This document shows positions 30,250 to 53,298 of a DNA stretch of 64,000 nt, piece by piece. The notes under the pieces are model-generated. The model did not search any database and was not told where the DNA came from. It worked only from the letters and a program-made list of their open reading frames with translations. The stretch comes from Desulfobacula sp. (GTDB taxonomy: Bacteria; Desulfobacterota; Desulfobacteria; Desulfobacterales; Desulfobacteraceae): the NCBI GenBank assembly GCA_018645325.1, contig JABGOU010000010.1:1-64000 (forward strand), written 5' to 3'. Position 1 is the first letter of the stretch; every line of letters starts with the position of its first letter. Made by a program: the position numbers and the translations under genes.

Positions 30250-31531
30250 AGGTGCGCATTTACTTGATCCTGGAAATATTGATGGGAAAAAAGGTATCTT
30301 CATTAAAGACCATCTTATTGAAGCAATTGTCGATCCGGACGATATTGAAACAAAGACTTATATTGAAACCAGGTCCGATACCAAAATCATAGATGCTAAA
30401 GGGATGATTGTTGTGCCGGGATTAATTGATATTCATGTTCATTTGAGAGAGCCGGGACAAGAATATAAGGAAACAATTAAATCCGGGCTTTTGGCTTCTG
30501 CCCGAGGTGGTTTTACCGGGGTTTGTTCAATGCCTAACACAAATCCTGTGAATGATAATAGGCAGGTGACAAAGTTTATTATCAATCGATCAAAGGAATT
30601 AGGTCTTTCAAAAGTATATCCTACAGGAGCAATAACAAGGGGTTCACTGGGGAATACATTGGCTGAAATATATGATATGCAAAAGGCAGGGATCGTTGCT
30701 GTAACCGATGATGGGAAACCAATTGAAAATGCAAACATGATGCGCCGGGCAATGGAATATTGCAAGGGGCTCAATATTCCTGTCTTTGTCCATGCTGAAG
30801 AGTTAAGCCTGGTTGATGGCGGGTCTATGAATGAAGGACCTTTTGCTACTTTCTGGGGGATAAAAGGTATCCCTAATGCGGCAGAGAGTATTATGGTTGC
30901 AAGAGATATTGCACTTTGTGAACTTACCGGTGCATCAGTACATTTTTGCCATGTCAGTACTAAAGAGTCTGTGGAAGCTATCCGGCAGGCAAAAAAAAGA
31001 AAAATAAATATCACCTGTGAGACAGCACCTCACTATTTTACATTAACAGATGCAGATGTAAAAGATTATGATACAAATTTTAAAATGAATCCTCCGCTGA
31101 GATCTGAAGAAGACAGACTGGCAATTATTTGCGGTCTTTCAGATGGGACAATTGATCTGATTGCATCTGACCATGCGCCCCACAGTGTGGTGGAAAAAGA
31201 TGTGGAGTTTGATATGGCAGCCTTTGGTATTATAGGCTTGGAAACATCCTTGCCCCTTTCTTTAAAACTGTTCCATGACAAGTTTTTAACCCTGGAAGAA
31301 CTTATTAATAAAATGTCAAAGAATCCTGCAAAAATCATTGGGATCAATAATGATATCAAACCGGGGAATTTAGCAGATTTGACCATTATAGATCCGGATG
31401 TGGCCTATGAAATCAACCCTGAGTCATTTAAATCCAAAAGTAAAAATTCACCTTTTTCAGGGATGAAGGTCAAAGGCAGGGTATTTTTAACCATGGTAAA
31501 TGGAAAGGTTGTTTATTTAAATGGAAAATAA
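30233..31531 (+). CDS. pyrC: Dihydroorotase
   Basis: Cyclises carbamoyl aspartate to dihydroorotate. The metal-binding DIHVHLREPGQEYKET is the class I signature; later HAEEL, HFCHVST and ASDHAPHSVVEKD supply more ligands and the catalytic Asp. About 432 residues. The ATG at 30233 is chosen because GGAGGTGG lies just upstream and MQTLIKGAHLLDPG matches the family start; the open frame further upstream is inside pyrB. It overlaps the next gene by 11 bases. Confidence 0.95.
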   Translation: MQTLIKGAHLLDPGNIDGKKGIFIKDHLIEAIVDPDDIETKTYIETRSDTKIIDAKGMIVVPGLIDIHVHLREPGQEYKETIKSGLLASARGGFTGVCSMPNTNPVNDNRQVTKFIINRSKELGLSKVYPTGAITRGSLGNTLAEIYDMQKAGIVAVTDDGKPIENANMMRRAMEYCKGLNIPVFVHAEELSLVDGGSMNEGPFATFWGIKGIPNAAESIMVARDIALCELTGASVHFCHVSTKESVEAIRQAKKRKINITCETAPHYFTLTDADVKDYDTNFKMNPPLRSEEDRLAIICGLSDGTIDLIASDHAPHSVVEKDVEFDMAAFGIIGLETSLPLSLKLFHDKFLTLEELINKMSKNPAKIIGINNDIKPGNLADLTIIDPDVAYEINPESFKSKSKNSPFSGMKVKGRVFLTMVNGKVVYLNGK

Positions 31532-32915
31532 AGAAACTATCCTTGTTGTAGATGATGAAGCAAGCATGCGTGAGTTTCTTGAAGTTTTTTTGTCAAAACA
31601 AGGGTATAAGGTGTCTGATGCCAAAAATGGCAGACAGGCATTAAAGATGATTCAAAAGAACAATTACGATCTAATCCTGACGGATATTCGTCTTGGTGAC
31701 ATCACAGGGCTTGAAGTTCTGAAAGAAGCTAAAAGGAAAAGTCCGGATACTGTTGTTATTATGATTTCTGCATATTCTACGACGGAAATTGCAGTTGAGG
31801 CCATGAATGAAGGGGCATATGATTTTGTTCCCAAACCTTTTGATAATATTGAATTAAAGCAGACTATAAAAAGAGCCCTTGAATTAAAGACTCTTGATCA
31901 GGAAAAAGAGCGGACATCCACAGAGGTTCGGGACAATCTGTATTTTAACCGGATTATCGGGAAAAGTCCTGGAATGCATGCTATCTATAAAAGAATCGAA
32001 CAGATTAGCTCAACAAAAACCAATGTTTTGATTTCAGGAGAAAGTGGAACCGGAAAAGAGTTGATTGCACGAGCTATTCATGAAAATTCCGACAGAAAGG
32101 ATAAGCCTTTTGTGGTTGTCAATTGTGGAGGTATCCCAGATACATTAATGGAAAGTGAATTTTTCGGACATGTCAAAGGATCTTTTACTGGAGCAACAGG
32201 TGATAAAAAAGGACTTTTTGAGGCATCCCATCAAGGTACCATTTTTCTGGATGAAATAGGAGAATTATCCACCTTTCTCCAGGTTAAATTATTGAGAGCG
32301 GTTCAGGAGACTTTTGTGAAACCTGTTGGTGGTACAAAAGAAATTAAAGTAGATACAAGGATTATATCTGCAACCAATAAAAAACTTGAGCAGGAAGTCA
32401 TAGATGGGAATTTCAGGGAAGATTTGTTTTTCAGGCTTAACGTTATTCCGATTAAGGTTCCTCCATTAAGGGATAGAAAAGGGGATGTGGAGATTCTTTC
32501 AAAGCATTTTGCTGAAAAATACTCAAAAAAAATGGATAAAGATATCGTAAAGTTATCTTCCTATGCTATTGATTTTTTAAATAAATATAGTTTCCCTGGT
32601 AATGTCCGCGAACTTGAAAATTTAATCGAACGAAGTGTAGCCCTTTCTTCCACAAATATTATTTTACCTGAAAGTCTGACAATTTCCATGCATAAAAAAA
32701 GAAGATGGATTGAGGGCATAAAAGGAAGGCGGTTTGATCTTGAAGACGTTGAGCAGGGGGTGGATCTGGATGAAATTTTATCGATCATTGAGCAGAGCTA
32801 TCTTAACAAAGCCATGGAACTTACAAGAGGCAATAAAAGCAAAGCTGCTGATTATTTAAAATTAAGTTTAAGGTCTATGCGATACCGCCTTGAAAAAATT
32901 GAGCCTGTTGACTAA
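31521..32915 (+). CDS. pilR: Sigma-54-dependent response regulator, PilR-like
   Basis: A 464-residue NtrC-family activator: receiver domain (about 1-120, phospho-Asp in LILTDIRLGD), AAA+ domain (about 140-380) with GESGTGKELIARAIH and GSFTGA in the sigma-54-contact loop (the PilR variant of GAFTGA), Walker B GTIFLDEIGEL, and a C-terminal Fis-type helix-turn-helix ending KLSLRSMRYRLEKI. The GSFTGA and RSMRYRL forms resemble PilR, and a pilA gene with a sigma-54-type promoter lies 9 kb away. No PilS sensor kinase is in the window. The ATG overlaps the pyrC end. Confidence 0.85.
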   Translation: MENKETILVVDDEASMREFLEVFLSKQGYKVSDAKNGRQALKMIQKNNYDLILTDIRLGDITGLEVLKEAKRKSPDTVVIMISAYSTTEIAVEAMNEGAYDFVPKPFDNIELKQTIKRALELKTLDQEKERTSTEVRDNLYFNRIIGKSPGMHAIYKRIEQISSTKTNVLISGESGTGKELIARAIHENSDRKDKPFVVVNCGGIPDTLMESEFFGHVKGSFTGATGDKKGLFEASHQGTIFLDEIGELSTFLQVKLLRAVQETFVKPVGGTKEIKVDTRIISATNKKLEQEVIDGNFREDLFFRLNVIPIKVPPLRDRKGDVEILSKHFAEKYSKKMDKDIVKLSSYAIDFLNKYSFPGNVRELENLIERSVALSSTNIILPESLTISMHKKRRWIEGIKGRRFDLEDVEQGVDLDEILSIIEQSYLNKAMELTRGNKSKAADYLKLSLRSMRYRLEKIEPVD

Positions 32916-38024: not shown

Positions 38025-39266
38025 TTAATTTTTATTATTTAAAGCAGAACGATATGCTTTTATAGTTTCATCGGCGCATTTTTTCCATGAAAATAATTTT
38101 GTTCGTTCAATGCCTTTTTTTGAAAGATGATTACGGAGTTTATTGTTTTTTACAATATCAATCATGGCCTGGCATAATGCATCACCATCTTTTGGATTAA
38201 TCATTATACCGGCATCACCCACCACCTCGGGCAGAGAACTTGTATTAGATGTAATAACCGGTGTTCCGCACTGCATCGCCTCAAGAGGAGGCAGACCAAA
38301 TCCTTCATATAATGAAGGATAGATAAAAGCAAGAGCACCGCTGTAAATTGCACTTAAATATTTATCAGGAATAAACCCTGTGAAAACAATTCGGTTTTTA
38401 AGTATTGGGTCGGAAAAAATTTCTTTGTAGAGATGGTCTGTTTTCCAGCCTCGTTTTCCAGCAATAATAAAATGAATATGCCCCATACCGGGTTCTCTTA
38501 GGATTTGTTTGAAGCATCCAAGAGTATATAATAAGTTTTTTCTCGGTTCAATAGTGGCAAGACTTAGGAAATAGTCTCCTTCTGGAATATTGAATTGCTG
38601 AGTTGTGTTTATAATTAGATTATTATCAGTAATAGGAAAATATAGTTTTTTTGATGCCGCCAGATGGGTTACAAACACCCTGTCTTTTGAAATACCAGAA
38701 AACTCGCATATATTTTTTTTTGAACATTCAGATACAGCAATAACCCAGTCATTTTTAATATCAATACTTTTTACAACATTATGCATACGTTTGGATTGAA
38801 AACCAGTGCAGTATTTCGGGAACAGAATCGGAATAATGTCATGGATTGTGATAAACCTGGTTTGGCTTTTGTTACAAATATTTTTAGGAATAGGAAAATA
38901 TAATGAATGGAAAATATCGATATCTTCCCGTAAAAATTTATTCTTGGGCAATTGCAGCAAAAGAGCGGTATAAAGCATGAGTCCATATTTATGTTTGAAC
39001 CAGGGAGATCCAGTCATTACTCTGTAAAGAAATTTTTCAAGTTTTGTGTTTTCAAAAATACATTGAATGTGATGATTTTTATTTGAGAAATATTTTTTTG
39101 TAAGCTCAATTGAATGCGGCAGTTCCAGAAGGGCGAAATAAAGATCTAATTCAGCCCTGTCCAACAGAGCTTTTGATAGGCTTGTCGCAACACGATATAA
39201 ACCTGTCTTTCCTGTTGGGTCCAGTTGACCTTGCCCTATGTTTGAAACTTCAAGTGAGATTTTCAT
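38025..39266 (-). CDS. Glycosyltransferase family 4 protein
   Basis: A 413-residue GT4 enzyme. LATIEPRKNLLYTL begins the nucleotide-sugar domain and YPSLYEGFGLPPLEAMQCGTPVI is the donor-binding E-x7-E segment; FITIHDIIPILFP is typical of the mannosyl/rhamnosyl transferases of O-chain clusters. The ATG at 39266 overlaps the preceding gene stop (TGATG), so the GTG three bases upstream is less likely. Donor and acceptor cannot be read from sequence. Confidence 0.9.
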   Translation of the reverse strand: MKISLEVSNIGQGQLDPTGKTGLYRVATSLSKALLDRAELDLYFALLELPHSIELTKKYFSNKNHHIQCIFENTKLEKFLYRVMTGSPWFKHKYGLMLYTALLLQLPKNKFLREDIDIFHSLYFPIPKNICNKSQTRFITIHDIIPILFPKYCTGFQSKRMHNVVKSIDIKNDWVIAVSECSKKNICEFSGISKDRVFVTHLAASKKLYFPITDNNLIINTTQQFNIPEGDYFLSLATIEPRKNLLYTLGCFKQILREPGMGHIHFIIAGKRGWKTDHLYKEIFSDPILKNRIVFTGFIPDKYLSAIYSGALAFIYPSLYEGFGLPPLEAMQCGTPVITSNTSSLPEVVGDAGIMINPKDGDALCQAMIDIVKNNKLRNHLSKKGIERTKLFSWKKCADETIKAYRSALNNKN

Positions 39267-40336
39267 CACAATTTACCTGTCAGGCCAATAATAATATCAT
39301 CAACTGAAATTTGAGTCATACATGACAGGTTGTTCAAACAGGGCGGGGTAGAACCAAACCTTGTACAGGGGCTGCATTTAAGGTTTTTATTGATGACAAG
39401 GTGCTTCCGACCTTCTGGCGCCCATTTGGCAGCAATCCCGGCACCAAACAGAGAAATTGTTGGAACATTGCTCAATACCCCCATATGCAGTATTCCGGAA
39501 TCAGTACTGATCAATAATTCTGATTTATTAAACAGAGCCGCTGTTTCAATAATTGAAAGTGCGGAGCATAGATTTATTCCTGCATCTGTTTTACAAAGCT
39601 CCATGATTTTTTTGCATTGATTATATTCTTTTGAACCACCGATTAAAATTGGTTTGATATTTTTATTTGCTATCCAGTCCATGACTTTTGCCCATTTTTT
39701 TTCAGGCCAGAGCCGTTCATCTATTGTTGCACCCGGGAATAAACAGATAATTTTTTCTTTTTTGAATGATTTAGGCTGATTGTGAACCTGGGGAATAAAA
39801 TATGGAAATTTAAAATGAAATGGTTTTTTAAGGTCAAACACCATTGAAAAAAGTTCCCAGAATATCTTTGCCTCATAGATATTTTGGCTGTAGGATATGG
39901 CTTTGTCATACATTTTCTCACGGCCATTGGTTTTAAATCCGGCTTTGATATCTGCAGAGACTATCCTTGTAATAATTGCAGACAAAAAGTGAGATTGCTC
40001 CGTATCAAAAACAAGGTCATACTTAGTTTGAAAAACAGACAGCATGGATAAAAATTTTTTGTATGAAAAGACCTGATTTAAAAATGTAACGCTGTTAAAT
40101 ACAATTATATTTCTTGGTTCACATAAAATATCAATCTTTACATGAAATGAGAAGGCAATCTCTTTCAGAATTGGGAGCAGTAAAAGGGCATCTCCCATTC
40201 CTCCTGGCCTTATTACCAGAATTTTTTTTATTGGTGTATCTTTGGATTTAGATATGGCTGGTTTGGGAAATAATTTTAATAAAATCGGACCAATGATTTG
40301 ATCAATTTGTTTTATGATTTTGATGGTATTCATCAT
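39266..40336 (-). CDS. Glycosyltransferase family 9 (heptosyltransferase-like)
   Basis: A 356-residue GT9 enzyme of the ADP-heptose:LPS heptosyltransferase family. Signs are ILVIRPGGMGDALLLLPIL near the N-terminus, LFPGATIDERLWPEKKWAKV, ISTDSGILHMGVLSNVPTISLFG, and a cysteine-containing tail (CSPCTRFG...PPC) seen in many GT9 proteins. It overlaps the UbiA-like gene by four bases (ATGA) and the next GT by one codon. The sugar may be heptose or another LPS/capsule residue. Confidence 0.9.
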   Translation of the reverse strand: MMNTIKIIKQIDQIIGPILLKLFPKPAISKSKDTPIKKILVIRPGGMGDALLLLPILKEIAFSFHVKIDILCEPRNIIVFNSVTFLNQVFSYKKFLSMLSVFQTKYDLVFDTEQSHFLSAIITRIVSADIKAGFKTNGREKMYDKAISYSQNIYEAKIFWELFSMVFDLKKPFHFKFPYFIPQVHNQPKSFKKEKIICLFPGATIDERLWPEKKWAKVMDWIANKNIKPILIGGSKEYNQCKKIMELCKTDAGINLCSALSIIETAALFNKSELLISTDSGILHMGVLSNVPTISLFGAGIAAKWAPEGRKHLVINKNLKCSPCTRFGSTPPCLNNLSCMTQISVDDIIIGLTGKL

Positions 40337-41217
40337 GTACTATAAATAATAATTGTTAAAAATAAAAGAAAGATTGATGCGGAAAGTAAGAGCTGACTGT
40401 CTGAAAAAAGTGTTTTGATTGGATCAGCGGCTTTACCAAAGTCTGCAAGATAAATAAATCTAAATATGCCATAGGCTGCCGGTATAATGGAGAAAATAAC
40501 AAATTTGCCATGTTCAACCGCATACAGGGAGTAGACCACCAGGGTTACACTTCCGCATGCCCAGAGCATGTTGTTAAGAAAGGTCAAAGAATATCCTGCC
40601 TGACTTTGCCGATGAAGCCTTGCTGTCTTTTTCCCAAGTTCCTTGAGTTCGTTTAACCGCTTGGCAATGGAGATCATCATGGCAATGAAAAAAACAGTTA
40701 AAAATAACCAGCTTGATACTGCTACATTACAGACAGCTCCCCCTGCAAGCACCCTTAATACAAAACCTGTGGCAATAACAAAAATTTCAAAAATTACAAT
40801 AGATTTAAAGTATAAACTATAACTTAAGGAGAGAAGCAAATAGGCCAGAAGATAGGTCAAAAATAATGAAGGGAAATGGGAAAAGACCGATATCAATATG
40901 ATAAGGAAAACCAAGCCTGCTGAAAGAACCAGCGCAGTTTTTCCAGAAACGGTCCTGGCGCAAAAGGGGCGATTTTGTTTTTCAGGATGAAATTGGTCAT
41001 TTACTTTATCTACCCAGTCATTAACTATATACCCCAATCCTGAAACAAGGCAGAAAACAAAACAACCTAGACCGGTAATAAAGATAGTTTCACTTAAAAG
41101 GTTGCCGGAAAAAAACAAAGGCGAAAATAAAAGAAGGTTTTTGATCCACTGATTTGGCCGAATCAGTTTAATGTGGGTTTTGCAAAATAAGATGATATTA
41201 ATTTTATTTTCAGCCAT
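40333..41217 (-). CDS. UbiA-family prenyltransferase, decaprenyl-phosphate phosphoribosyltransferase-like
   Basis: A 294-residue membrane protein with about eight or nine helices. The RPNQWIKNLLLFSPLFF opening and the first aspartate-rich motif NDWVDKVNDQFHPEKQNRP match the DPPR-synthase branch (Rv3806c-like), which transfers phosphoribose from PRPP to polyprenyl phosphate, rather than quinone-forming UbiA. It is first in the glycan operon and divergent from pilA across a 389-base gap. Polyprenyl-phosphoribose could feed an arabinose or ribose donor for a GT-C enzyme; this is inference. Confidence 0.85.
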   Translation of the reverse strand: MAENKINIILFCKTHIKLIRPNQWIKNLLLFSPLFFSGNLLSETIFITGLGCFVFCLVSGLGYIVNDWVDKVNDQFHPEKQNRPFCARTVSGKTALVLSAGLVFLIILISVFSHFPSLFLTYLLAYLLLSLSYSLYFKSIVIFEIFVIATGFVLRVLAGGAVCNVAVSSWLFLTVFFIAMMISIAKRLNELKELGKKTARLHRQSQAGYSLTFLNNMLWACGSVTLVVYSLYAVEHGKFVIFSIIPAAYGIFRFIYLADFGKAADPIKTLFSDSQLLLSASIFLLFLTIIIYST

Positions 41218-41501: not shown

Positions 41502-41517
41502 TGGCACCTTTTTTGAT
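41502..41517 (+). promoter_or_regulatory. Candidate sigma-54 (-24/-12) promoter of pilA
   Basis: TGGCAC (41502-41507), five bases, then TTGAT (41513-41517). It matches the -24 element TGGCAC exactly and the -12 element TTGCW except for C to A, with correct spacing. Predicted start of transcription is near 41529, about 80 bases before pilA. pilA genes are classically RpoN/PilR-controlled, and both regulators are encoded in this window. Confidence 0.72.
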
Positions 41518-41606: not shown

Positions 41607-41825
41607 ATGTTGACCTGGCTAAGACAAAGAAGAAATCAAAAAGGTTTTACCTTGATTGAACTTATGATTGTTATTGCAATTATAGGTATCCTTGCTGCAA
41701 TTGCTATCCCACAGTTCAGCAGCTACCGGGCAAAGTCCTATAACTCGGCAGGATTAAGCGATATCAGGAACCTGAGAACCGATCTTGAAGCATACTATGC
41801 AGAATGGGATGAATATCCTAATTAA
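41607..41825 (+). CDS. pilA: Short type IV major pilin (PilA-N, e-pilin-like)
   Basis: A 72-residue prepilin: a 13-residue basic leader ending at Gly13, then a 59-residue mature pilin starting [20 protein letters not shown] with Glu5. It stops after the alpha helix and lacks the usual C-terminal globular head, just like Geobacter PilA, to which it aligns without gaps over its whole length. Aromatic residues in the mature chain are F1, F24, Y27, Y32, Y50, Y51, W54 and Y57, 8 of 59. Strong GGAGG before the ATG. The next gene encodes a secreted partner. Conductivity is an inference only. Confidence 0.93.
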
Positions 41826-41894
41826 TCAATATGGATAATTCAAGAATTCAAAATTTTTAGATTCAAGCTTAATCCAAAATACAGGAGAGATAAA

Positions 41895-42236
41895 ATGACA
41901 AAAAATATAATAATAGCTTTAGGTCTTCTCATGATGATAGCCTTTACTTCAACTGTTTGGGCAGAAACAGTGACTATTGACGGAAGCAACTCCGGGGGGA
42001 CAGATCTGGTATTTACCACTTCTCCCAATACAACAATGAATACTGCAACCACGGCTACTGCGTTTTATATTGCTGCTGCCAGCACCAGAACTACTACAAG
42101 TAACGGGATTGAATATGCAATGACATCAGCCAATGGTTTTATTTACCAGAAGGCTCAAGCAACTGCCGGCGCTTGTACTGCAGCTGGAACTGCCGGTGCT
42201 GTACCAAGTGGTTATACAGTAAAAGGCGGAACCTGA
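41895..42236 (+). CDS. Secreted pilin-head-like protein (PilA-C/Spc-like)
   Basis: A 113-residue protein with a clear signal peptide (IIIALGLLMMIAFTSTVWA, cleavage before ETV) and a Thr/Ala/Ser-rich mature part. The end, NGIEYAMTSANGFIYQKA then PSGYTVKGGT, resembles the C-terminal beta head of full-length deltaproteobacterial pilins. In Geobacter the corresponding gene (PilA-C or Spc) follows pilA and stabilises the short pilin. The same order, an AGGAG ribosome-binding site 70 bases after the pilA stop, and a shared terminator support the same role here. Confidence 0.82.
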   Translation: MTKNIIIALGLLMMIAFTSTVWAETVTIDGSNSGGTDLVFTTSPNTTMNTATTATAFYIAAASTRTTTSNGIEYAMTSANGFIYQKAQATAGACTAAGTAGAVPSGYTVKGGT

Positions 42237-42265: not shown

Positions 42266-42301
42266 AAAAGCCAGACCCCAAATTCTTGGGGTCTGGCTTT
42301 T
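42266..42301 (+). terminator. Strong rho-independent terminator after the pilin genes
   Basis: A perfect 16-bp stem, AAAAGCCAGACCCCAA (42266-42281) with TTGGGGTCTGGCTTTT (42286-42301), a four-base loop and a T tract. It ends the pilA-N/pilA-C unit; the ribosome-binding AAAGG of the next gene follows directly, so that gene may depend on read-through or another promoter. Confidence 0.93.
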
Positions 42302-42312
42302 TAAAGGTATGT

Positions 42313-44031
42313 ATGAAAATTAAAACCGGTTCATTTAAAAGCCAGCCTTTTCTTATCTGCCTGTTGCTCATCATGGCCATTTACCTTCCCGTTAATTATT
42401 TTGGTTTTGTGAGCATGGATGATGCAGAACATTTTGATAAATTTTTAAATGAAGATTTTAATTTTGATCTTTTCAAAACATTCTTTCGTGATTCAGCAAC
42501 AACATATTACAGGCCCTTGTTAGCCCTGTCCTTTTATCTTGACGGCCAGATCTGGGGATTGTCAATGAAAGGATATCATTTTACCAATTATTTTTTCCAT
42601 ATCATAAATGCCATACTTGTCTATTTGATTGCTTTGCAGCTTTTTAAGCAGGATAAGAAAGTAAAGTTTTATGCAAGTCTTGCCATGGTTTTATTCGGCC
42701 TTCATCCATTGACCTGTGAATCAGTGGCCTGGGTTTCAGGTCGCTCAGATATTGCCGGGGTTTTCTTTTTTCTTTTGGGGGTTTATTTTTATTTTATAAG
42801 GAAACCTTTTCGATTTGTACTGACACCCTTTGCAGTTTTTATGGGAATGCTGTGCAAGGAAAACGCTTTAGCAGGCATTCCAATTATTATACTCATGGAT
42901 CTGTTCATCAATTGTATCCATAAACATCGGGTTAAAGATATTTTAAAATCTTTTGTTGTATGGAGCATTGTCATGGCAGTTCCCCTTTTTTTATACCTGT
43001 TTTTAAGAACGGGCGGGTGGGAGTATTATACTAATGTTTCTTTTTTCGTGCCTGCAAAAACAATTGATACGGGTAGCGGTGAAATAAGTTTTTTTAAGTT
43101 TTTTCAAGTTTTCCCAGTGATCGCTTTTTATCTTAAAAAGCTTATAATCCCGTTTCCGCTTAATTTTGCAATATCCCAGATCAATACATTGATTTATTCA
43201 ATGGTTTTTTTTGCTTTTTGTATGCTGAATATTTTTTGGTTCTTTAAAAAAAAAAGATTTTTAGCACTCTGGAGCATGATCCTTGTCATATCTTTTGTTC
43301 CGGCCCTGCCAATTGCTTTTGGAACAATAGCATGGGTTCCTTTTGCTGAAAGATACTTGTATCTGTCCGTCAGTGTGGCAGGTATTTGCATGGCTGCCTG
43401 CGGCCGTTATTTTGTTAAAAAAGGTTTTATAAGTTTTCAAAACCAATGGATAGTTTTCATTGTCCTGATACTTGTTTTTTCTATTACAACTTTTAACAGA
43501 GAATTTGTGTGGAGAAATAATCAAACCCTCTGGGCAGATACCTTGAAAAAAAATCCGAATTCCAGCATGGTATTGTTTAAATATGGTCAGGCTTTTGGAC
43601 GAGAAAAAGAAATATGGGCTTACAAAAAAGCTATAGCTATTTCAGATAATTTCAAATTTAAAGATCTAACTCTTCTTGAGATTGCAGAATATGAAAAATC
43701 TGTCGGGAATTATGATAAAGCAATTGAAAATATTGAAAAGGCATTGGCTATTAATAAAAATTTTGAAAATCTGTGTCAAGCGGCTGAAATTATTTTATCA
43801 ATAGGACTAGAGAATAAACATCTTGAAAAAGAATATACAGCACAGGCTATACCATATTATAAGTCTGCATATAAAACACATAAGACCGCCTTTGTTCTGT
43901 ATGAAATTGGAATACTAATGAAAAAAACAGGCAGGCAGGCTGAGGCAATACAAATTTTTAAAAAGGTGATTCATAAACATCCAAAGTCGAAATATGCTCT
44001 TTATGCAGGTATACAGCTAAAAAAAATATAA
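42313..44031 (+). CDS. GT-C-type membrane glycosyltransferase with TPR tail (TMTC-like)
   Basis: A 572-residue protein with about ten membrane helices (roughly residues 15-410) and a C-terminal TPR region (about 430-572). FVSMDDAEHF has the paired acidic residues of a GT-C first loop; TYYRPLLALSFYLDGQIWG and HPLTCESVAWVSGRSD match TMTC-type protein O-mannosyltransferase-like proteins. Such enzymes use polyprenyl-phosphate sugars on exported proteins. It begins right after the pilin terminator, so pilin glycosylation is a plausible role. ATG 42313 has AAAGG five bases upstream; a TTG at 42286 inside the terminator is unlikely. Confidence 0.85.
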   Translation: MKIKTGSFKSQPFLICLLLIMAIYLPVNYFGFVSMDDAEHFDKFLNEDFNFDLFKTFFRDSATTYYRPLLALSFYLDGQIWGLSMKGYHFTNYFFHIINAILVYLIALQLFKQDKKVKFYASLAMVLFGLHPLTCESVAWVSGRSDIAGVFFFLLGVYFYFIRKPFRFVLTPFAVFMGMLCKENALAGIPIIILMDLFINCIHKHRVKDILKSFVVWSIVMAVPLFLYLFLRTGGWEYYTNVSFFVPAKTIDTGSGEISFFKFFQVFPVIAFYLKKLIIPFPLNFAISQINTLIYSMVFFAFCMLNIFWFFKKKRFLALWSMILVISFVPALPIAFGTIAWVPFAERYLYLSVSVAGICMAACGRYFVKKGFISFQNQWIVFIVLILVFSITTFNREFVWRNNQTLWADTLKKNPNSSMVLFKYGQAFGREKEIWAYKKAIAISDNFKFKDLTLLEIAEYEKSVGNYDKAIENIEKALAINKNFENLCQAAEIILSIGLENKHLEKEYTAQAIPYYKSAYKTHKTAFVLYEIGILMKKTGRQAEAIQIFKKVIHKHPKSKYALYAGIQLKKI

Positions 44032-44417: not shown

Positions 44418-45738
44418 CAGTAATGTCCGGTTAGGTTTTTGCTTGTGTTATTATTTTTTGATCTTTGACAACATTGTCCCTACTTGGATTCGGTGCAGCA
44501 GCATCAGTGCCACTGAATAGTTCATTTAAGATTGTGGTCCGTAATTCTCGAACTCTTTTGATAGAAACCTTTTCACTGAACTGTTCCCGGCAGTATATAG
44601 CCATCAGCAAATATGTGATGAGGCCTCCGAGTATTTGAACCATGAGCCCATATTCACTTCTGGCAATCAAATGGTATACCTTTAAGTGTTCTTTCCACCA
44701 TTTGAAAAAATTTTCTATGGTCCACCTGAGTTTATAAATCGTTGCTATCTGTTCAGCTGTCAGATCATGCCGATCAGTCGCAACATAATATTTAACCCCG
44801 GCAATCTTATAATCGACGACTCGAACAGGCTTCCGGGTCTGATTTTGTCCAGGGGTGCCAATAAGTACCACAGCATCATAGAAAATATAATTGCCAGGGA
44901 TAACGCAGTTCTCTTTAAGGATTGTCCTTGTTGTTTTGGTTTTGATACGGCAAACAAAATGTTTGTTTTCTTTTTGAAGCAGGTCAAAATCCTTATGAGA
45001 TTGATACCCCCGGTCCATGACACCGGTTTGTCCTTTTGAAAGAATAAGGTTAACAAAAGGACGTTCTCCACCATTACCGTCAGTAAGGAATATTTTGTTT
45101 GGAATGCCGTGATTGATATCAAATCCGCAATGAGCTTTGGCTTTTTTAGAACCTTTTCTGTAATCAGCCCAGTACATTGAAAGAACTGCATCAATCAGTC
45201 TGCCATCAATGGATACAAGATTTCCTAACTGTGAATGCTCTTTAGGAAGAACGCCCGCAGCCTGTTTATAAAGATTTTCAAAAATGAATTGTAATTGTTC
45301 AAGCCCCCTATGGTTGACTGCCTCAGAAAAGCTGCTGCGACTAATACCCCATCCGGGGAGATGTTTTGTTTGGCAAATTCATTTTCTTTCAGATCTTGAA
45401 TGAGGTGCCGGGCTGATTTGTGTTCCTGAAGATGAAAGTATATCAGGGCGTTTAATTGGTCCTCAAATGTCATTTTTAAAGGTCGATCTCCTCTTGATAA
45501 TAATTCTGGCGTAAATGGAAATAACTTTACCAGAGGAATCTTAAATTTGTCAAAAGTCAGAGACTGAAGCTGTTTTTTAGGGATCGATATGCAAGTCATG
45601 CTTTAACTCCTTGAAAATAAAGGTTATATTTTCAAGGCGCGCGGCATTTTGCCGCCCCTTTGTCAACAAAAAAATGAAGTTTTAATTAAAAAAAATGTGT
45701 TAGATGTGCTATGCAAGTATCTAACCGGACATCACTAT
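44418..45738 (-). mobile_element. IS4-family insertion sequence
   Basis: About 1.32 kb. Terminal inverted repeats AGTAATGTCCGGTTAG (44419-44434) and, on the other strand, AGTGATGTCCGGTTAG (45721-45736) match at 15 of 16 positions. An 8-bp direct repeat GTTAAATT (44410-44417 and 45739-45746) is the likely target duplication; the exact ends are uncertain by one or two bases. It holds one broken transposase gene on the minus strand. Hairpins upstream of that gene (45609-45637 and 45641-45655) resemble the transcription-shielding stems of IS ends. Confidence 0.9.
44431..45599 (-). pseudogene. IS4-family transposase, frameshifted
   Basis: The N-terminal part (45599 to about 45365) and C-terminal part (about 45365 to 44431) are in different frames; the total length is not a multiple of three. 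In the second frame the protein continues PGWGISRSSFSEAVNHRGLE, then SIDGRLIDA (first catalytic Asp), VMDRGYQSH (second Asp) and YKLRWTIENFFKWWK, the Y-R-E-K box of IS4 transposases with the catalytic Glu. A -1 shift around 45360-45370 would restore the frame; I see no canonical slippery heptamer there, so inactivation by indel is more likely than programmed frameshifting. AAGGAG precedes the ATG. Confidence 0.88.
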
Positions 45739-45971: not shown

Positions 45972-46523
45972 ATGGTATTGAGAAATAAAATAGAGGCAAA
46001 GGCGGGTTTCACGCTAATAGAGCTTATGATTGTGATTGCCATGATTGGTATTTTGTCTGCTATTGCAGTTCCAAGATTCAATGCCTGGCTTCCAGGGTAC
46101 AGGCTTAAATCAGCTGTTAGTGATTTACAATCAAATATGCAAAAAGCAAGAGTTATGGCAATAAAAGGAAACCTTTCAGTTCAGATACGATTTGACAATA
46201 CAAATTTACCGGGTTTTTATTATTTTGATACTATTGACGATGATGCGTACACAGCCGGAGAATTCCGGGTTAATCTCTCATCCTACAGCAGTGGAGTTGA
46301 TTATGGCACAGGAAATGCCAGTCTTAACTGGAGTGGAAATAATTGTACCCAGGCTACAGCCATAGGTTTTGGAAGCCGTGGTACGGCAAACCAGGCAAGT
46401 GTTTTTCTGCAGAATGAAAATGCAGCTGTCTGTTATGCAGTAACTACCAGTATTGCCGGTACTGCAAAAGTCAGAAAATATAACGGATTACTGCCGTTTA
46501 GTACTAACAATTGGATTCAATAA
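45972..46523 (+). CDS. fimT: Type IV minor pilin, FimT/FimU (GspH) type
   Basis: A 183-residue prepilin: short basic leader ending in Gly, then [20 protein letters not shown] with Glu5, followed by a beta-rich head (IRFDNTNLPGFYYFDTI...). The LQSNMQKARVMAIKGN helix after the N-terminal segment is the GspH/FimT domain mark. It begins the operon fimT-pilW-pilV-pilX-pilY1, the standard set of minor pilins that prime pilus assembly with PilY1. Two cysteines (NNCTQ and AAVCYA) may form a disulfide. Confidence 0.9.
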   Translation: MVLRNKIEAKAGFTLIELMIVIAMIGILSAIAVPRFNAWLPGYRLKSAVSDLQSNMQKARVMAIKGNLSVQIRFDNTNLPGFYYFDTIDDDAYTAGEFRVNLSSYSSGVDYGTGNASLNWSGNNCTQATAIGFGSRGTANQASVFLQNENAAVCYAVTTSIAGTAKVRKYNGLLPFSTNNWIQ

Positions 46524-47398
46524 TGGTCTATAATATTTATAATTCTAATAAATCCAAAGGTTTTACATTAATTGAAATTCTTATCACTTTATTAATTTCA
46601 AGCGTTGTGATGATTGCAGCTTATCAGACATTCGACTCCCAGCAAAAAAGTTATTTGATCCAGGAGAATGTTGCAACAATGCAGCAAGGGCTGAGGGCGT
46701 CAATGCTTCTTCTGACTAATGATATCAGGATGGCAGGATATGACAGCCAACTCAGCGATAATTTTGGAATTACAGATATCACTCCCAGAGACATAAATAA
46801 CAACGTAGATGCCGGGAATACTGGAAAAAGCGGTATCGAGATCACAGCAGATTTAGATGATGACGGGCAAATCAGTACTGGAGAAAGGATTCACTACTCA
46901 GTTTATGATTTCGTCGCAGGTGATGGAAATCTTGATCTGGCAAGAAATAGTGGTAATGGTAGACGGCTATTGGCCGAAAATATCCAGGGATTTGGTCTTG
47001 CTTTTGCCTTTGACGATGATCTTGACAATGAAATGGACACCTATACTGCAACAAATCCCGGTGCAACCCAGCATATTATTTGGGCCATAGATTCAGACGG
47101 TGACAATGACCTTGATACAAATCTTGATACAAACCTTGATGGGATTATTGATGTTGCTGACAGCCCCGGTGGGGCTGGGAGTAATGGTATAATTGTGGGA
47201 ACTGCCCTTTCAACTGATGTTCCCATTGCCAATATTCGGGCCGTAAAAGTTTGGCTGCTTGCAGAAACCGACCAAATACAAACCGGCCTAAATTCAACAG
47301 ACACCTATATCGTTGGAAAATATGTAATTACACCAAACAATAACAAACTGATGAGGCTTTCAAGCACAACCATTAAATGCCGAAACCTGGGGTTATGA
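46523..47398 (+). CDS. pilW: Type IV minor pilin PilW
   Basis: A 291-residue prepilin with leader ...NKSKG and mature start FTLIEILITLLISSVVMIAA (Glu5 present), then the typical PilW region AYQTFDSQQKSYLIQENVATM and LLTNDIRMAGYD. The head holds acidic calcium-loop-like stretches (DLDDDGQISTGE and DSDGDNDLDTNLDTNLDG). The ATG at 46523 overlaps the fimT stop (TAATG), so they are translationally coupled; an upstream in-frame TTG at 46511 is less likely. Confidence 0.92.
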   Translation: MVYNIYNSNKSKGFTLIEILITLLISSVVMIAAYQTFDSQQKSYLIQENVATMQQGLRASMLLLTNDIRMAGYDSQLSDNFGITDITPRDINNNVDAGNTGKSGIEITADLDDDGQISTGERIHYSVYDFVAGDGNLDLARNSGNGRRLLAENIQGFGLAFAFDDDLDNEMDTYTATNPGATQHIIWAIDSDGDNDLDTNLDTNLDGIIDVADSPGGAGSNGIIVGTALSTDVPIANIRAVKVWLLAETDQIQTGLNSTDTYIVGKYVITPNNNKLMRLSSTTIKCRNLGL

Positions 47399-47841
47399 AA
47401 AATTTTATTTTAAAATTAAAACAAACATCAAAGGTTCAAAAAGGATTCACTCTGATAGAAATCCTGATTGCCATTGCCATTTTATCCATAGGCTTATTAA
47501 GTATTGCTGCTATGCAGGTATCAGCAATCCGTGGGAATGCCAAGTCAAACAAGTTATCACAAAGAACCACAACCGCATCCAACCATATAGAATATCTCTT
47601 AAATCTACCTTTTAATGATTCCAATTTGTCAGCTGGAAATCATGACCCGGAAAATGACGGTGTTGATAATGATGGAGATGGTGTTACAGATGAACCAGAT
47701 GATGACGGTGAATTAAAATATTCTGTCACCTGGAATATTACAGATGACACCTCAAGTCAAAAGACCATTGCACTGACCATTGCCGTAACTTCTTATGGCT
47801 CAGCAACAACCTTAACTATCAATACTATAAGAATTAGATAG
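47395..47841 (+). CDS. pilV: Type IV minor pilin PilV
   Basis: A 148-residue prepilin: leader ending KG, then FTLIEILIAIAILSIGLLSIAAMQ, the PilV/GspI-type N-terminus. The short head contains an acidic run DPENDGVDNDGDGVTDEPD, which resembles thrombospondin type 3 calcium loops. Its ATG lies in the ATGA overlap with pilW (47395-47398), so the earlier in-frame ATG at 47377 is rejected. Confidence 0.92.
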   Translation: MKNFILKLKQTSKVQKGFTLIEILIAIAILSIGLLSIAAMQVSAIRGNAKSNKLSQRTTTASNHIEYLLNLPFNDSNLSAGNHDPENDGVDNDGDGVTDEPDDDGELKYSVTWNITDDTSSQKTIALTIAVTSYGSATTLTINTIRIR

Positions 47842-47861
47842 AATGTCAAGGAGGTAAACAT

Positions 47862-48350
47862 ATGCGGATCAAGACTTTAAATAATCAGGAGGGGTTTGCT
47901 TTAATTACCACCTTGCTTTTTTTAGTAATTCTGACCATTATTGGAATTGCAGCAACAAACACTACCTCCATTGAAATCAGTATTGCAGGTAATGAAAAAG
48001 TCTATAAACAAAATTTTTATCAGGCTGAAGGGGCAGCCAATGAAGCTGCCAGCAAAAATCTTGAATCCGCCTGGGTATGGGAATTCAACAAAAATGATTT
48101 TCCTGATAATGGTAATGGAGAAGTGGACGTAGACCAGGTTTTTACACAAACCTCCGGACTGAGTGCCAATACAAATTATGGTGTTGTTGATAATGATATC
48201 CCTTCAGGTATATTAGGTTCAGGTCATTCTTTAAAGGTTGAAGGAACCAGTGGTTCCGGAGGTAGGATGAATTTTTTTGATTTATATGGTCAAAGCACTG
48301 AGAACAACAGTACTGTCAGAATTGTCATGGGATACACAAAACGGCTATAA
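47862..48350 (+). CDS. pilX: Type IV minor pilin PilX
   Basis: A 162-residue protein with a PilX-type N-terminus: leader ending EG, mature FALITTLLFLVILTIIGIAA with no Glu at position 5, then the PilX box SIEISIAGNEKVYKQNFYQAEGAANEA. Absence of Glu5 is usual for PilX and GspK-like tip subunits. Good GGAGG ribosome-binding site 7 bases before the ATG. It lies directly before pilY1, its usual partner. Confidence 0.92.
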   Translation: MRIKTLNNQEGFALITTLLFLVILTIIGIAATNTTSIEISIAGNEKVYKQNFYQAEGAANEAASKNLESAWVWEFNKNDFPDNGNGEVDVDQVFTQTSGLSANTNYGVVDNDIPSGILGSGHSLKVEGTSGSGGRMNFFDLYGQSTENNSTVRIVMGYTKRL

Positions 48351-48362
48351 GAGGGGTGATTT

Positions 48363-51300
48363 ATGGTTTTTAAAAAAAAAATCGCTGGCTTTACTGGAAA
48401 ATGCAAGTTCATCATGCTATCTTTATTCTTTCTTTTATACTATACCACCAATGGATTATGCATAGATATAAGTGATGATCCAATGGATACAAAAGTACAG
48501 GCAGCACCACCCAATATCATGTTTGTCATTGATAATTCAGGCAGTATGGACTGGGAGTTCATGACAGAAGAGAATAACGGAAGATTTACGATTTCAGGCT
48601 CCGCGCATGAATACCTTTTCTCAAATCCCGGTGATAATGTCTACTCGTCCTATAGCTCTAATGGGACTATTTTATCAAACACAGATAAAGAGTATTGGAA
48701 AGGCCAGTGGTCTGGTTACAATAAACTTTATTACAATCCTTCATCTACCTATACCCCATGGCCCGGCACAGCAACCTATACCATGGATGATGCTGATTTG
48801 AAAACTTCTTATTCCAATCCTATTCATGTCAGCGGTGGAGATCCATCCATAACTTTAAAAAATACTTTTAAAACAATTACCTATAGAACACCGATCATTG
48901 TGGATAATGCTGACGGTGGACCTGATTTTACCACAACGGGTACCTGGTCTGAATCATCCTATGAAAATGAGTGGCCATATCCAGATGCAACTCATAGCTC
49001 TTTATCTACAAATGGCAGTGGGACGGCTGTTTTCAAACCTGACATTCCCAATACGGATGTTTATGAAGTTTATGCGTGGTGGAATTGTTATTCCAGCCGT
49101 GATACCAACGCAAAAATCACAATTAACCACATTGGAGGTCCAACAATAATATTCAAAACTCAGCAGGCTTCTGCTGTCACTAAAAATGAACCTGGTGTTT
49201 GTGGAGAATGGATATCTTTAGGTGATTATAATTTTAACAGTGATGACAGCGGAAATGTCGTTATCGAACGCCACGGCGCCAGTACAGGAGATTCTACCAT
49301 TGCCGATGCCATCAAGTTTATTCGAACTAGCACTCCTGATGCAGACATCCTAATCAAGAACGCCCATTATTTCACATGGTATGATGAGAATAGCAATGAG
49401 ACAGTGGACAATCTGGAAGTCTATCTTGTTACATGGGAAGACACGGATGCTGATGACATTCTTGATCACAGGCTCTATTACCAGGTGGACAATACTGATG
49501 ACGATAAAGTTGAGTCATTGGAGTTAAGGCCTCTATCCTATCATAAAGATGATCAGGGAAATGATGAAGTTCCCAATGATATACAACCCAAAAATTATGA
49601 TGAAAACGGGAGTGATTTTACATACAAAACAGATGAAGAAGACCTTCAAAATTTTGCTAACTGGTACTCTTACTATCGGCGAAGGGAACTTGCAGCAAAG
49701 GCAGCTATTGCAAAATCCATTTTAGACCTTGATTGGGTATATGCAGGATTTTATACCATTAACAGCGGACTTCGACAGACGGTTTTACCCATAAATGTAG
49801 AATCAAACTCGATTATTGTTGATAATAAAGACAGCGGATTTACTAAAAGCGGTACCTGGAAGGAATCAAGCGCCCAAAATTATGGCCAGGAGTATAATGA
49901 AAGCTCTCTTTATTCAAGCAGGGGTACTGCAAAATGGACTCCCAGTCTTACTGCAGGCTCATATAAAGTCTATGCCTGGTGGGGGTATGCCGGTAGTCGT
50001 ACCACCCAGGCACAATATACCATAAATCATAGTGGCGGAACTTCAACTATTACTAAAAATCATAATATTCAAACCGAGGCATTTCAGTGGCAGCTTTTAG
50101 GAACTTACTCTTTTAATGCAGGAACTTCAGGATATGTAACTGTAAAAAACATAGGAAGCACTAGGAAATATGCCAGTGCAGATGCCATAAAATTTGAAGG
50201 CACATCCGGCGGTACAACGGTTGATGACACGGATACGCTTTTGAATCTATTATACGAAATGAACTCCAGTGGTGGGACACCTTTGCGAGCTGCTCTCAGA
50301 GATGTTGGACGATATTATGATCAGGATGACGGGTATACGGGGAATCTTGGCACCTCTCCCTTTAAGGATGAGGCAGATGGAGGTGCCTGTCAACAGGCTT
50401 TTACGGTTTTAATGACGGATGGATATTATAACGGCAGTGATCCTGGAATTGGAAATGAAGACGGGGATGATGGAGCACCCTATGCAGACTCGTATTCAGA
50501 TACCCTGGCAGACATGGCTATTAAATATTATGATACTGATTTAGCCGATACTTTACCTGACAATCTGCCCACTAACAATTATGACAATAAAAAATCCCAG
50601 CATATGATCACATATTCTGTTTCATTCGGAGTTACGGGCACGATTGATCAAACCGATATGGATAATGATGGAATCACTGACAACCCGAGTTATGAAGATG
50701 ACCCATATTTTTTAAATTCTAACACCCCAAAGCCGACCTGGCCTAATCCGGACAGTGGAGATTCGCAGAAAATTGATGACCTCTGGCATGCTGCTGTAAA
50801 TGGCAGGGGAGAATTTTTCAGTGCTGATGATCCTGAAGAACTGGTCTCTTCATTAAATTCAGTTTTTGAAAATCTGGCATCCAGAATTGCATCCGGTGCA
50901 TCTGTCTCAGTAAATGGTGATGAACTGAACACAGGGTCAGTCATGTATCAGTCTACATACACATCCGGAGATTGGGAAGGAGATGTGACAGCATATCCCA
51001 TAGACTCACACACAGGTGAAATTAAAACAGAAGATAGTGATATTCTCTGGCATGCATCAGAAAAGCTTCAATCACAGGATTGGGATACCGGGCGAAAAAT
51101 TGTAACCTATAACGGATATGATGATATTATAATTTTCAGATATGATAATTTGACAGCTCTTCAGAAAACATCCATTGACAGCAATCCCGATGTGGTGGAT
51201 TTTATCCGGGGTAAAGAAATATCAGGATTTAGATCCAGACAGAAAAAACTTGGGGATATTGTCCATTCTGCTCCACTTTTGGTGATTGGGGACAGTATGG

Positions 51301-52895
51301 ATAATGATAGTGACTCAGATATTGATGAAGAAGATGAAGAATCAGGCCTTATTTTTACCGGAGGAAATGACGGGATGCTGCATGCATTTGACGCACAAAC
51401 CGGTGATGAAATGTTTGCGTATATCCCCCACATTGTTTTTGAGCATTTAACCGATTTGACTTTAGTTGACTATGACCATAAATTTTATGTTGATGCCACA
51501 CCTTTTTCAAAGACTATCAATGTAAACAATAATGAACTGGTTGTTTTAACCGGCGGACTTAAAAAGGGAGGCAAAGGATATTTCTGCCTGGATATCACCA
51601 AAATTTTATATCAGAACACCACTTTTTCCGAAGATGAGCTGGCAACCCCTGCCCATACTGATGGGATTGATGTCTTATGGGAGTATCCGCAGTTAACAAC
51701 AGCCGGAGCAATTTTTGCAAGTGATGATGATTTGGGATACAGTTTTAGTGATATTTTTATTGTTGAATCTTATAAAACCGACAGTGATCCTGGCAACCAC
51801 AACTGGGTAGCCATTTTTGGGAATGGCTACGATTCTGTCAATGGGAGTGCCATACTTTACATTCTTAATGCATATACGGGCGAACTCATTAAAAAAATTG
51901 ATACAGGTGCTGCGGGAAATAATGGCTTGTCAAGCCCGGCCCTGATTGACATCGACAATGATGGAAAAGTTGATTATGCTTATGCCGGGGATCTTTTGGG
52001 CAACATGTGGAAATTTGATTTGACCAGTGATGATTCTGCAAACTGGAAAGTTGCCTACACAGAGACTGACAGCTCTCCTGCCCCGTTGTTTTCATCTCCG
52101 AGTCAGCCTATTACATCTACACCGGATGTAATGAATCATTGCGCCGATGATGAAGGCTATATGGTCCTTTTTGGCACGGGCAAATTTATTGCTGAATCCG
52201 ACCGAACCAATAATGACCAGCAAACAATTTATGGAATTTGGGATACGGGTTTCCCCGTGGGTGAATGGAATGAAACACTTGGTACTTTATCAAAAATGGC
52301 CGGAGCTACTCTGCTTGAGCAGACAGAAATTAATTTCCAGTATCTGAATGATCATTATTTGAGGACATTGAGTGACAATGAAGCCACCTGGGTTGAAGTT
52401 AATGAAGCCAGTGGACTTATAGAATCCGGCACCCATATTGGCTGGTATTTTGATTTACCCATGGACATGGACAATGATTTGGTTTTAGATGGAGAACGAG
52501 TAATTAAAAATGTCATGATTCGTGACGGACATCTTATTGCTATTGCATTTACTCCCAATGATTCACCATGTACAGGTGGGGGTACATCCATGGTGCATGA
52601 GTTAGATGCCTGCGACGGTAGCAGACTGAGTTCACCACAATTTGATATTAATGAGGATGGTATTATAGACATAAGTGATATGATAGAGATAGATGATCCC
52701 GACAATCCTGGACAGATGATCTTGGTACCCCCAACGGGAAAAGGATATGATGGTCTTTTACATCCTCCGATTATTGTGACTATGCCTAATAAGACGGTTG
52801 AAATGAAAATATTCAGCAGTTCAGCCGGGACAACGGAAAGACTTTTTGAAAATGCTGAAGGTGGGTTTTATTATTGGCGGGAAATTAAAAATTAA
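48363..52895 (+). CDS. pilY1: Type IV pilus tip protein PilY1 with two golvesin-like insertions
   Basis: A 1510-residue exported protein. Signal segment near 14-33; VWA domain starts at about 50 with MIDAS DNSGS (57-61), and its later MIDAS residues are in GGTPL (about 638) and MTDG (about 686). Between them are two related golvesin C-terminal-like beta domains (about 177-325 and 483-613, each with IIVDN at the start, YAWW, ITINH and ADAIKF near the end). The C-terminal PilY1 beta-propeller starts near 990 (GLIFTGGNDGMLHAFDA) and includes the calcium-site segment DIDNDGKVDYAYAGD. It acts at the pilus tip with the minor pilins in adhesion and retraction control. Confidence 0.93.
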   Translation: MVFKKKIAGFTGKCKFIMLSLFFLLYYTTNGLCIDISDDPMDTKVQAAPPNIMFVIDNSGSMDWEFMTEENNGRFTISGSAHEYLFSNPGDNVYSSYSSNGTILSNTDKEYWKGQWSGYNKLYYNPSSTYTPWPGTATYTMDDADLKTSYSNPIHVSGGDPSITLKNTFKTITYRTPIIVDNADGGPDFTTTGTWSESSYENEWPYPDATHSSLSTNGSGTAVFKPDIPNTDVYEVYAWWNCYSSRDTNAKITINHIGGPTIIFKTQQASAVTKNEPGVCGEWISLGDYNFNSDDSGNVVIERHGASTGDSTIADAIKFIRTSTPDADILIKNAHYFTWYDENSNETVDNLEVYLVTWEDTDADDILDHRLYYQVDNTDDDKVESLELRPLSYHKDDQGNDEVPNDIQPKNYDENGSDFTYKTDEEDLQNFANWYSYYRRRELAAKAAIAKSILDLDWVYAGFYTINSGLRQTVLPINVESNSIIVDNKDSGFTKSGTWKESSAQNYGQEYNESSLYSSRGTAKWTPSLTAGSYKVYAWWGYAGSRTTQAQYTINHSGGTSTITKNHNIQTEAFQWQLLGTYSFNAGTSGYVTVKNIGSTRKYASADAIKFEGTSGGTTVDDTDTLLNLLYEMNSSGGTPLRAALRDVGRYYDQDDGYTGNLGTSPFKDEADGGACQQAFTVLMTDGYYNGSDPGIGNEDGDDGAPYADSYSDTLADMAIKYYDTDLADTLPDNLPTNNYDNKKSQHMITYSVSFGVTGTIDQTDMDNDGITDNPSYEDDPYFLNSNTPKPTWPNPDSGDSQKIDDLWHAAVNGRGEFFSADDPEELVSSLNSVFENLASRIASGASVSVNGDELNTGSVMYQSTYTSGDWEGDVTAYPIDSHTGEIKTEDSDILWHASEKLQSQDWDTGRKIVTYNGYDDIIIFRYDNLTALQKTSIDSNPDVVDFIRGKEISGFRSRQKKLGDIVHSAPLLVIGDSMDNDSDSDIDEEDEESGLIFTGGNDGMLHAFDAQTGDEMFAYIPHIVFEHLTDLTLVDYDHKFYVDATPFSKTINVNNNELVVLTGGLKKGGKGYFCLDITKILYQNTTFSEDELATPAHTDGIDVLWEYPQLTTAGAIFASDDDLGYSFSDIFIVESYKTDSDPGNHNWVAIFGNGYDSVNGSAILYILNAYTGELIKKIDTGAAGNNGLSSPALIDIDNDGKVDYAYAGDLLGNMWKFDLTSDDSANWKVAYTETDSSPAPLFSSPSQPITSTPDVMNHCADDEGYMVLFGTGKFIAESDRTNNDQQTIYGIWDTGFPVGEWNETLGTLSKMAGATLLEQTEINFQYLNDHYLRTLSDNEATWVEVNEASGLIESGTHIGWYFDLPMDMDNDLVLDGERVIKNVMIRDGHLIAIAFTPNDSPCTGGGTSMVHELDACDGSRLSSPQFDINEDGIIDISDMIEIDDPDNPGQMILVPPTGKGYDGLLHPPIIVTMPNKTVEMKIFSSSAGTTERLFENAEGGFYYWREIKN

Positions 52896-53244: not shown

Positions 53245-53298
53245 TTGGCTATTCCATTTTTCATTGTTTTTTATTCATGAAACTTGATATGTAAACCT

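What the first reader, a model, noticed from the sequence alone, without database searches (positions are those of the whole stretch)
41607..42236. Split pilin: aromatic-rich short PilA-N plus secreted PilA-C
The 59-residue mature pilin aligns end to end with the Geobacter conductive pilin but has more aromatics (8 of 59, including a Y50-Y51-W54-Y57 cluster). The next gene encodes a signal-peptide protein that looks like the missing globular head. Known: in Geobacter short aromatic-dense pilins and their Spc/PilA-C partner are linked to extracellular electron transfer, though the nature of the conductive filaments is debated. Inference: this sulfate reducer may make a conductive or tightly packed pilus.
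Basis: partly seen in the sequence, partly recalled or inferred. Interest (0 to 1): 0.72.

Follow-up and report, generated by a model that had tools for sequence, protein, structure and literature searches.

The report
Two-gene type IV pilus subunit
A relative of the sulfate reducer Desulfobacula appears to make the main subunit of its hair-like surface fibre from two neighbouring genes, as Geobacter does; this is a known arrangement, and its many ring-shaped amino acids alone do not show that the fibre conducts electricity.

The parts
41502..41517 (+). sigma-54 (-24/-12) promoter-like site TGGCACCTTTTTTGAT, 90 nt before the pilA-N start
   Evidence: 10 of 11 consensus positions; at least 10 of 11 upstream of 16 of 26 short and 19 of 28 long pilins, about 0.15% of shuffles; alone in the window it is no rarer than chance (2 hits, 2.3 expected). 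Consensus recalled.
41607..41825 (+). pilA-N: short type IVa prepilin, 72 aa, mature 59 aa
41895..42236 (+). pilA-C: exported pilin head, 113 aa, mature about 90 aa, Ser/Thr-rich (28 of 90)
42286..44031 (+). multi-membrane protein with C-terminal TPRs, possible GT-C-like glycosyltransferase; matches of 80 bits or more near 20 of 29 split and 6 of 30 single-gene pilin loci
   Evidence: only TPR in Pfam/NCBIfam; synteny; glycosyltransferase role inferred
40333..41217 (-). UbiA-family protein resembling decaprenyl-phosphate phosphoribosyltransferase; near 16 of 29 split and 0 of 30 single-gene loci
   Evidence: PF01040 2.6e-22; NF008977 175.9 bits, below cut-off 234
39266..40336 (-). glycosyltransferase family 9, often next to the UbiA gene in relatives
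   Evidence: PF01075 5.8e-29
31521..32915 (+). NtrC-family response regulator, PilR-like by position in relatives
   Evidence: domains; directly upstream of pilA in several relatives; found in 10 of 29 split and 15 of 30 single-gene loci
45972..48350 (+). minor pilin genes (GspH/FimU-like, PilW-, PilV-, PilX-like)
48363..52895 (+). PilY1-type protein, 1510 aa, with two Golvesin_C stretches
   Evidence: PF05567 2.1e-47, PF25275 2.7e-42
53284..55699 (+). ABC ATPase, ABC-2 permease and third protein (PilH/PilI/PilG-like trio by position); lies directly behind pilA-C in 14 of the 15 other split loci of the family
   Evidence: no sequence comparison with M. xanthus PilGHI
44431..45599 (-). insertion-sequence transposase read as two ORFs, between the pilA part and the minor-pilin part of the locus
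   Evidence: PF01609 in the larger ORF; ORFs

Best explanation
pilA-N and pilA-C encode the two halves of one major type IVa pilin. PilA-N, the helix, is cleaved by prepilin peptidase and held in the inner membrane; PilA-C, the beta head, is exported by Sec and docks on the C-terminal end of PilA-N in the periplasm. The heterodimer is then polymerised and can be retracted. Residues Y50, Y51, W54 and Y57 lie where a head packs on the helix in one-chain pilins, so their first job is probably helix-head packing. Shown: both genes, processing motif and signal-peptide-like start, homology and fold of the halves, conserved linkage, shared locus type with single-gene pilins, motor-type ATPase and PilM genes in the genome. 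Inferred: docking, filament make-up, retraction, the role of the aromatics.
Confidence: 0.75

Rival explanations
1. Conductive e-pilus: PilA-N alone forms a thin filament whose aromatics carry electrons outside the cell; PilA-C is only a chaperone.
For: 8 aromatics in 59 residues, as in G. metallireducens PilA, whose expression in G. sulfurreducens gave pili of 277 S/cm (PMC5241403, abstract and passages; that construct carried pilA-N and pilA-C). Short pilins have more aromatics in the first 59 residues than long ones: mean 7.8 (26) against 6.5 (28, same phylum), Mann-Whitney p 1.1e-4, not corrected for kinship, and against 5.1 (72, named set).
Against: Same cluster in 8 of 28 long pilins; aromatic-poor split pilins seem to exist (L085 and L093); no MtrB-type porin; the solved Geobacter filaments hold PilA-C and are called poorly conductive.
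Confidence: 0.1
2. Periplasmic pseudopilus-like piston that helps secretion, as proposed for G. sulfurreducens PilA-N/C.
For: Model cited in PMC8844916; title of Gu et al. 2021 seen in a reference list only.
Against: Locus bears PilY1 and minor pilins and the genome two PilT-sized ATPases, the anatomy of a surface T4aP; other N_methyl clusters with their own ATPases lie on contigs C80, C81 and C125.
Confidence: 0.1
3. PilA-C is a secreted chaperone or accessory protein that is not part of the filament; the pilus is an ordinary T4aP otherwise.
For: Trimeric inner-membrane chaperone model cited in PMC8844916.
Against: Homology of Geobacter-type PilA-C with covalent pilin heads and presence in three cryo-EM entries.
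Confidence: 0.05

Closest known systems
Geobacter metallireducens type IV pilus, PilA-N/PilA-C (PDB 9egp)
   Same: Best PDB match of PilA-N; 59-residue mature pilin with 8 F/Y; its PilA-C chain is among the top three structural matches
   Different: W54 and no F56 here; PilA-C 22% identical over the structural alignment
Geobacter sulfurreducens PilA-N/PilA-C (GSU1496/GSU1497; PDB 6vk9, 7tgg)
   Same: Two-gene pilin with a separately exported head
   Different: 6 aromatics in the 58 aligned residues; PilA-C 22% identical over the structural alignment
Desulfobacula toluolica Tol2 and Desulfobacter postgatei pilins in Shu et al. 2016 (cluster 2 of that paper)
   Same: Same genus-level group; the paper lists Desulfobacterales among groups with truncated pilins
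   Different: The passages seen do not say which of the two is truncated; the partner-gene analysis in section 16 covers eight Geobacter genomes
   Same: ABC ATPase and third protein behind pilA; heads belong to the set homologous with Geobacter-type PilA-C (G035, G058, G059, G280, G331, G334 and G110 are among its 11 rows)
   Different: One chain; no UbiA gene found near them; heads of the 11-row set poorer in Ser/Thr (15.7% against 26.6-29.1%)
Myxococcus xanthus PilGHI transporter
   Same: ABC trio next to pilA; in Myxococcota locus L121 the order behind pilA is third protein, ATPase, permease
   Different: M. xanthus sequences themselves were not compared

Membership tests
Split geopilin (PilA-N/PilA-C) | Type IV prepilin with class III motif, mature 58-64 aa, no head | tested here: met
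Split geopilin (PilA-N/PilA-C) | Secreted partner gene directly downstream | tested here: met
   72 nt downstream, signal-peptide-like start (crude rule); 26 of 26 parsed short-pilin loci
Split geopilin (PilA-N/PilA-C) | Partner homologous to Geobacter PilA-C | tested here: met
Split geopilin (PilA-N/PilA-C) | Both chains in the filament | not testable with these tools
   needs cryo-EM or mass spectrometry
Type IVa pilus | Motor-type ATPases, PilM, minor pilins, PilY1 | tested here: met
   extension and retraction ATPases told apart by size only
Type IVa pilus | PilC, PilN, PilO, PilP and secretin PilQ | not tested
   not searched
Conductive e-pilus | Aromatic density at or above G. sulfurreducens PilA | tested here: met
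   8 of 59
Conductive e-pilus | Aromatic pattern confined to short pilins | tested here: not met
   same four-site cluster in 8 of 28 long pilins, 16 of 26 short
Conductive e-pilus | Measured filament conductivity | not testable with these tools
   experiment needed
Conductive e-pilus | Outer-surface electron-transfer cytochromes in the genome | tested here: inconclusive
   MtrB none; multiheme matches at 2 places and 5 places, one place shared; one is like high-molecular-weight cytochrome c; OmcS/OmcE/OmcZ not searched
PilGHI ABC transporter | Orthology to M. xanthus PilG, PilH, PilI | tested here: inconclusive
   synteny and a Myxococcota locus; M. xanthus proteins not compared

The most novel reading that the evidence does not exclude
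Splitting the pilin gene lets the head be exported on its own and O-glycosylated by a lipid-linked pentose pathway (UbiA/phosphoribosyltransferase-like gene plus the TPR membrane protein beside pilA) before it docks on the helix; the split arose more than once and was kept for head decoration, not for conductivity.
Probability: 0.2. Interest if true: 0.6.

Novelty: new member of a known kind. Interest (0 to 1): 0.36.

Why it matters
It shows that two-gene pilins recur in relatives of Desulfobacula and sit in the same type of locus as one-gene pilins, so the aromatic density of a short pilin is weak evidence for a nanowire. It also offers a testable other reason for the split: separate export and glycosylation of the head.

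Tried and rejected
Direct PDB sequence search with PilA-C: nothing relevant. Profile of 10 relatives: four antibody chains rank above geopilin domain 2, the best of them through signal-peptide letters. NCBIfam ArfC match of PilA-C (E 5.7e-4, 20.5 bits against cut-off 100): rejected as low-complexity similarity. Phylum search with the PilA-C profile A1: only 3 of 297 genomes, own included, so PilA-C is too divergent to track alone. Aromatic richness as a mark of short pilins alone: rejected, although a modest excess remains. Sigma-54 site by window-wide count: not above chance; kept because of its conservation. Phylogenetic contrasts for the glycosylation link: only 3, none against, not significant. 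One origin of split pilins: rejected on the linked ABC ATPase tree (AU p 0.00089; quick tree of a locus gene, with long branches). Foldseek search of the PDB as such: machine busy three times; only the VIA-align second look ran. On rereading, the confidence of the best explanation was set from 0.77 to 0.75 so that the four explanations add up to 1.

Full report
What is there. The two ORFs exist as described. PilA-N has the class III prepilin motif; its mature 59 residues carry 8 F/Y/W. Its nearest PDB sequences are Geobacter PilA-N chains. The chain of the G. metallireducens entry in that alignment also has 8 in 59; the G. sulfurreducens chain has 6 in its 58 aligned residues. So the pilin is not more aromatic than every Geobacter pilin. 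The genome (G000, 4.39 Mb, 90% complete) is in the same genus (tool's kinship) as G038, whose contig has the same length (20,879) and the same pilin as JABIYQ010000191.1, a MAG titled Desulfobacula sp.. A dsrA-like fragment is present but covers only 111 of 402 positions and is below the family cut-off.

How general it is. At E 1e-15 or better, short-pilin loci were found in 16 of 86 genomes of the family, 9 of 26 in the window's own genus (a floor, since weaker matches were not examined and many genomes are incomplete). Of 59 loci fetched as the best matches to PilA-N in family and phylum (L022-L080), 54 were parsed: 26 short, 28 long. All 26 short ones have a secreted 112-146-aa protein within 250 nt downstream; among the 28 long ones only one hit, itself a pilin. 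Of the 5 unparsed loci, 3 hold short and 2 long pilins by eye; they are not in these counts. In the named genome collection the best 80 of 501 relatives gave 9 flagged short, of which one (L139) is a false frame and one (L089) runs into the contig end; two others, Mariprofundus L085 and Brachymonas L093, are aromatic-poor (3 of 52, 4 of 53) yet have secreted neighbours.

One locus type, two gene arrangements. In 14 of the 15 other split loci of the family, an ABC ATPase, an ABC-2 permease and a third protein follow pilA (the exception is G001). Single-gene pilins with PilA-C-like heads, for example G035 in the same genus, have the ABC ATPase and third protein behind them too, and G035 has the PilR-like gene upstream. 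In fetched stretches the ABC ATPase plus third protein is seen in 25 of 29 split and 14 of 30 single-gene loci, the PilR-like gene in 10 of 29 and 15 of 30. A sigma-54 site with at least 10 of 11 consensus positions lies upstream of 16 of 26 short and 19 of 28 long pilins against 0.15% and 0.14% of shuffles. In M. xanthus PilG, PilH and PilI are described as essential for pilin translocation across the inner membrane (PMC3724824, passages); the identification of the trio with PilGHI rests on position and on L121 (Myxococcota). In the window the trio stands at 53284-55699, separated from pilA-C by the TPR protein, an IS remnant and the minor-pilin/PilY1 block. The genome holds five PilB/GspE-like and two shorter, PilT-sized ATPases and PilM. 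The simplest reading is a T4aP whose major pilin is made in two pieces.

Aromatics. In the first 59 residues short pilins average 7.8 aromatics (26), long ones of the phylum 6.5 (28), long ones of the named set 5.1 (72); the samples are best matches to a short query and are not corrected for kinship. All four of 50, 51, 54 and 57 are aromatic in 16 of 26, 8 of 28 and 0 of 72. So there is a modest excess, largest at 54, 32 and 57 against the phylum's long pilins, but the cluster also exists where a covalent head is kept. That speaks for helix-head packing; it does not exclude electron transfer. Literature: Tan et al. 2017 link aromatic density to conductivity (PMC5241403, abstract and passages; their construct carried pilA-N and pilA-C); a 2026 review calls the PilA-N/PilA-C pilus poorly conductive (PMC12954529, passages); PMC9207759 disputes that such filaments occur in the wild type (passages).

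Cytochromes. Own-genome searches: paired CXXCH 2 places, MtrB/PioB none, C554-type 5 places, one place on contig C103 being in both lists; one multiheme protein matches high-molecular-weight cytochrome c at 1.3e-120. Geobacter nanowire cytochromes were not searched. This neither supports nor excludes extracellular electron transfer.

A possible reason for the split. While reading synteny I noticed a UbiA-family gene and the TPR membrane protein near split pilins. Counted on 29 split and 30 single-gene loci, UbiA is near 16 and 0, the TPR protein (80 bits or more) near 20 and 6, both near 15 and 0. Limits: the set includes the loci in which the link was noticed; the queries come from split loci; stretches differ in length (3 of 29 split and 6 of 30 single-gene stretches under 10 kb; three split ones 30-40 kb, others up to 20 kb); the 30 are 28 of the 30 long-pilin loci plus G031 and G046, with G127 and G163 left out; and the loci are related. 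The UbiA protein is below the NCBIfam cut-off of the phosphoribosyltransferase it resembles. PilA-C is Ser/Thr-rich: 28 of 90 in the window, mean 29.1% in the 15 and 26.6% in the 9 split heads, 15.7% in 11 covalent heads. On the ABC ATPase tree the split loci are not one clade (AU p 0.00089, 34 rows), and well-supported branches force at least 3 changes in the 42-row tree, so the split may have arisen, been reversed or been transferred more than once. Of the 42 loci with the ABC gene, UbiA is near 16 of 25 split and 0 of 17 single-gene, the TPR protein, now at 130 bits, a cut-off set, near 17 and 0. Independent contrasts number only 3: UbiA goes the same way in 0.7, the TPR protein in 1.9 of them, the other way in 0; not significant. 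That these genes glycosylate the pilin head, and the parallel with TfpW in Pseudomonas, are inference (TfpW papers seen as a search listing only).

Prior work. Shu et al. 2016 (PMC5174107; abstract, sections 14 and 16, passages) reported truncated pilins with adjacent PilA-C-like genes in Geobacter, a likely origin by gene fission, truncated pilins in Desulfobacterales, and Desulfobacula toluolica Tol2 in a cluster that mixes truncated and full-length pilins. A 2018 review (PMC6201914, passages) notes two separate pilA-C clades. Paper searches on Desulfobacula pilins, truncated pilins in sulfate reducers and Geobacter pilin glycosylation showed no title or abstract start linking split pilins with glycosylation genes among the rows listed (3, 12 of 33 and 12 of 54 papers); I did not read those papers beyond the passages named here. 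The window's pair is a new member of a known kind.

Noticed in passing
48363-52895: The PilY1-type protein carries two Golvesin_C stretches besides the PilY1 propeller.
   Followed up: no
44431-45599 (-): IS transposase read as two ORFs, lying between the pilA part and the minor-pilin part of the pilus locus; G026 has homologous IS pieces near its locus too.
   Followed up: partly
L085 (5001-5707), L093 (5001-5597): Mariprofundus and Brachymonas loci with 52-53-residue pilins and secreted neighbouring genes but few aromatics: apparent split pilins outside Desulfobacterota.
   Followed up: partly
36650-38008 (-): 452-aa protein that reads as an IspD-like cytidylyltransferase followed by an SDR-like domain, next to a CDP-alcohol transferase-like gene in the glycan cluster (ORFs; reading by eye, not searched).
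   Followed up: no
L033, L034, L035 partner genes: Three same-genus genomes (G044, G036, G055) have short pilins whose 141-146-aa partners look unlike the window's PilA-C, though pilA, ABC trio, TPR protein and UbiA genes match. They were not put into the PilA-C alignments.
   Followed up: no
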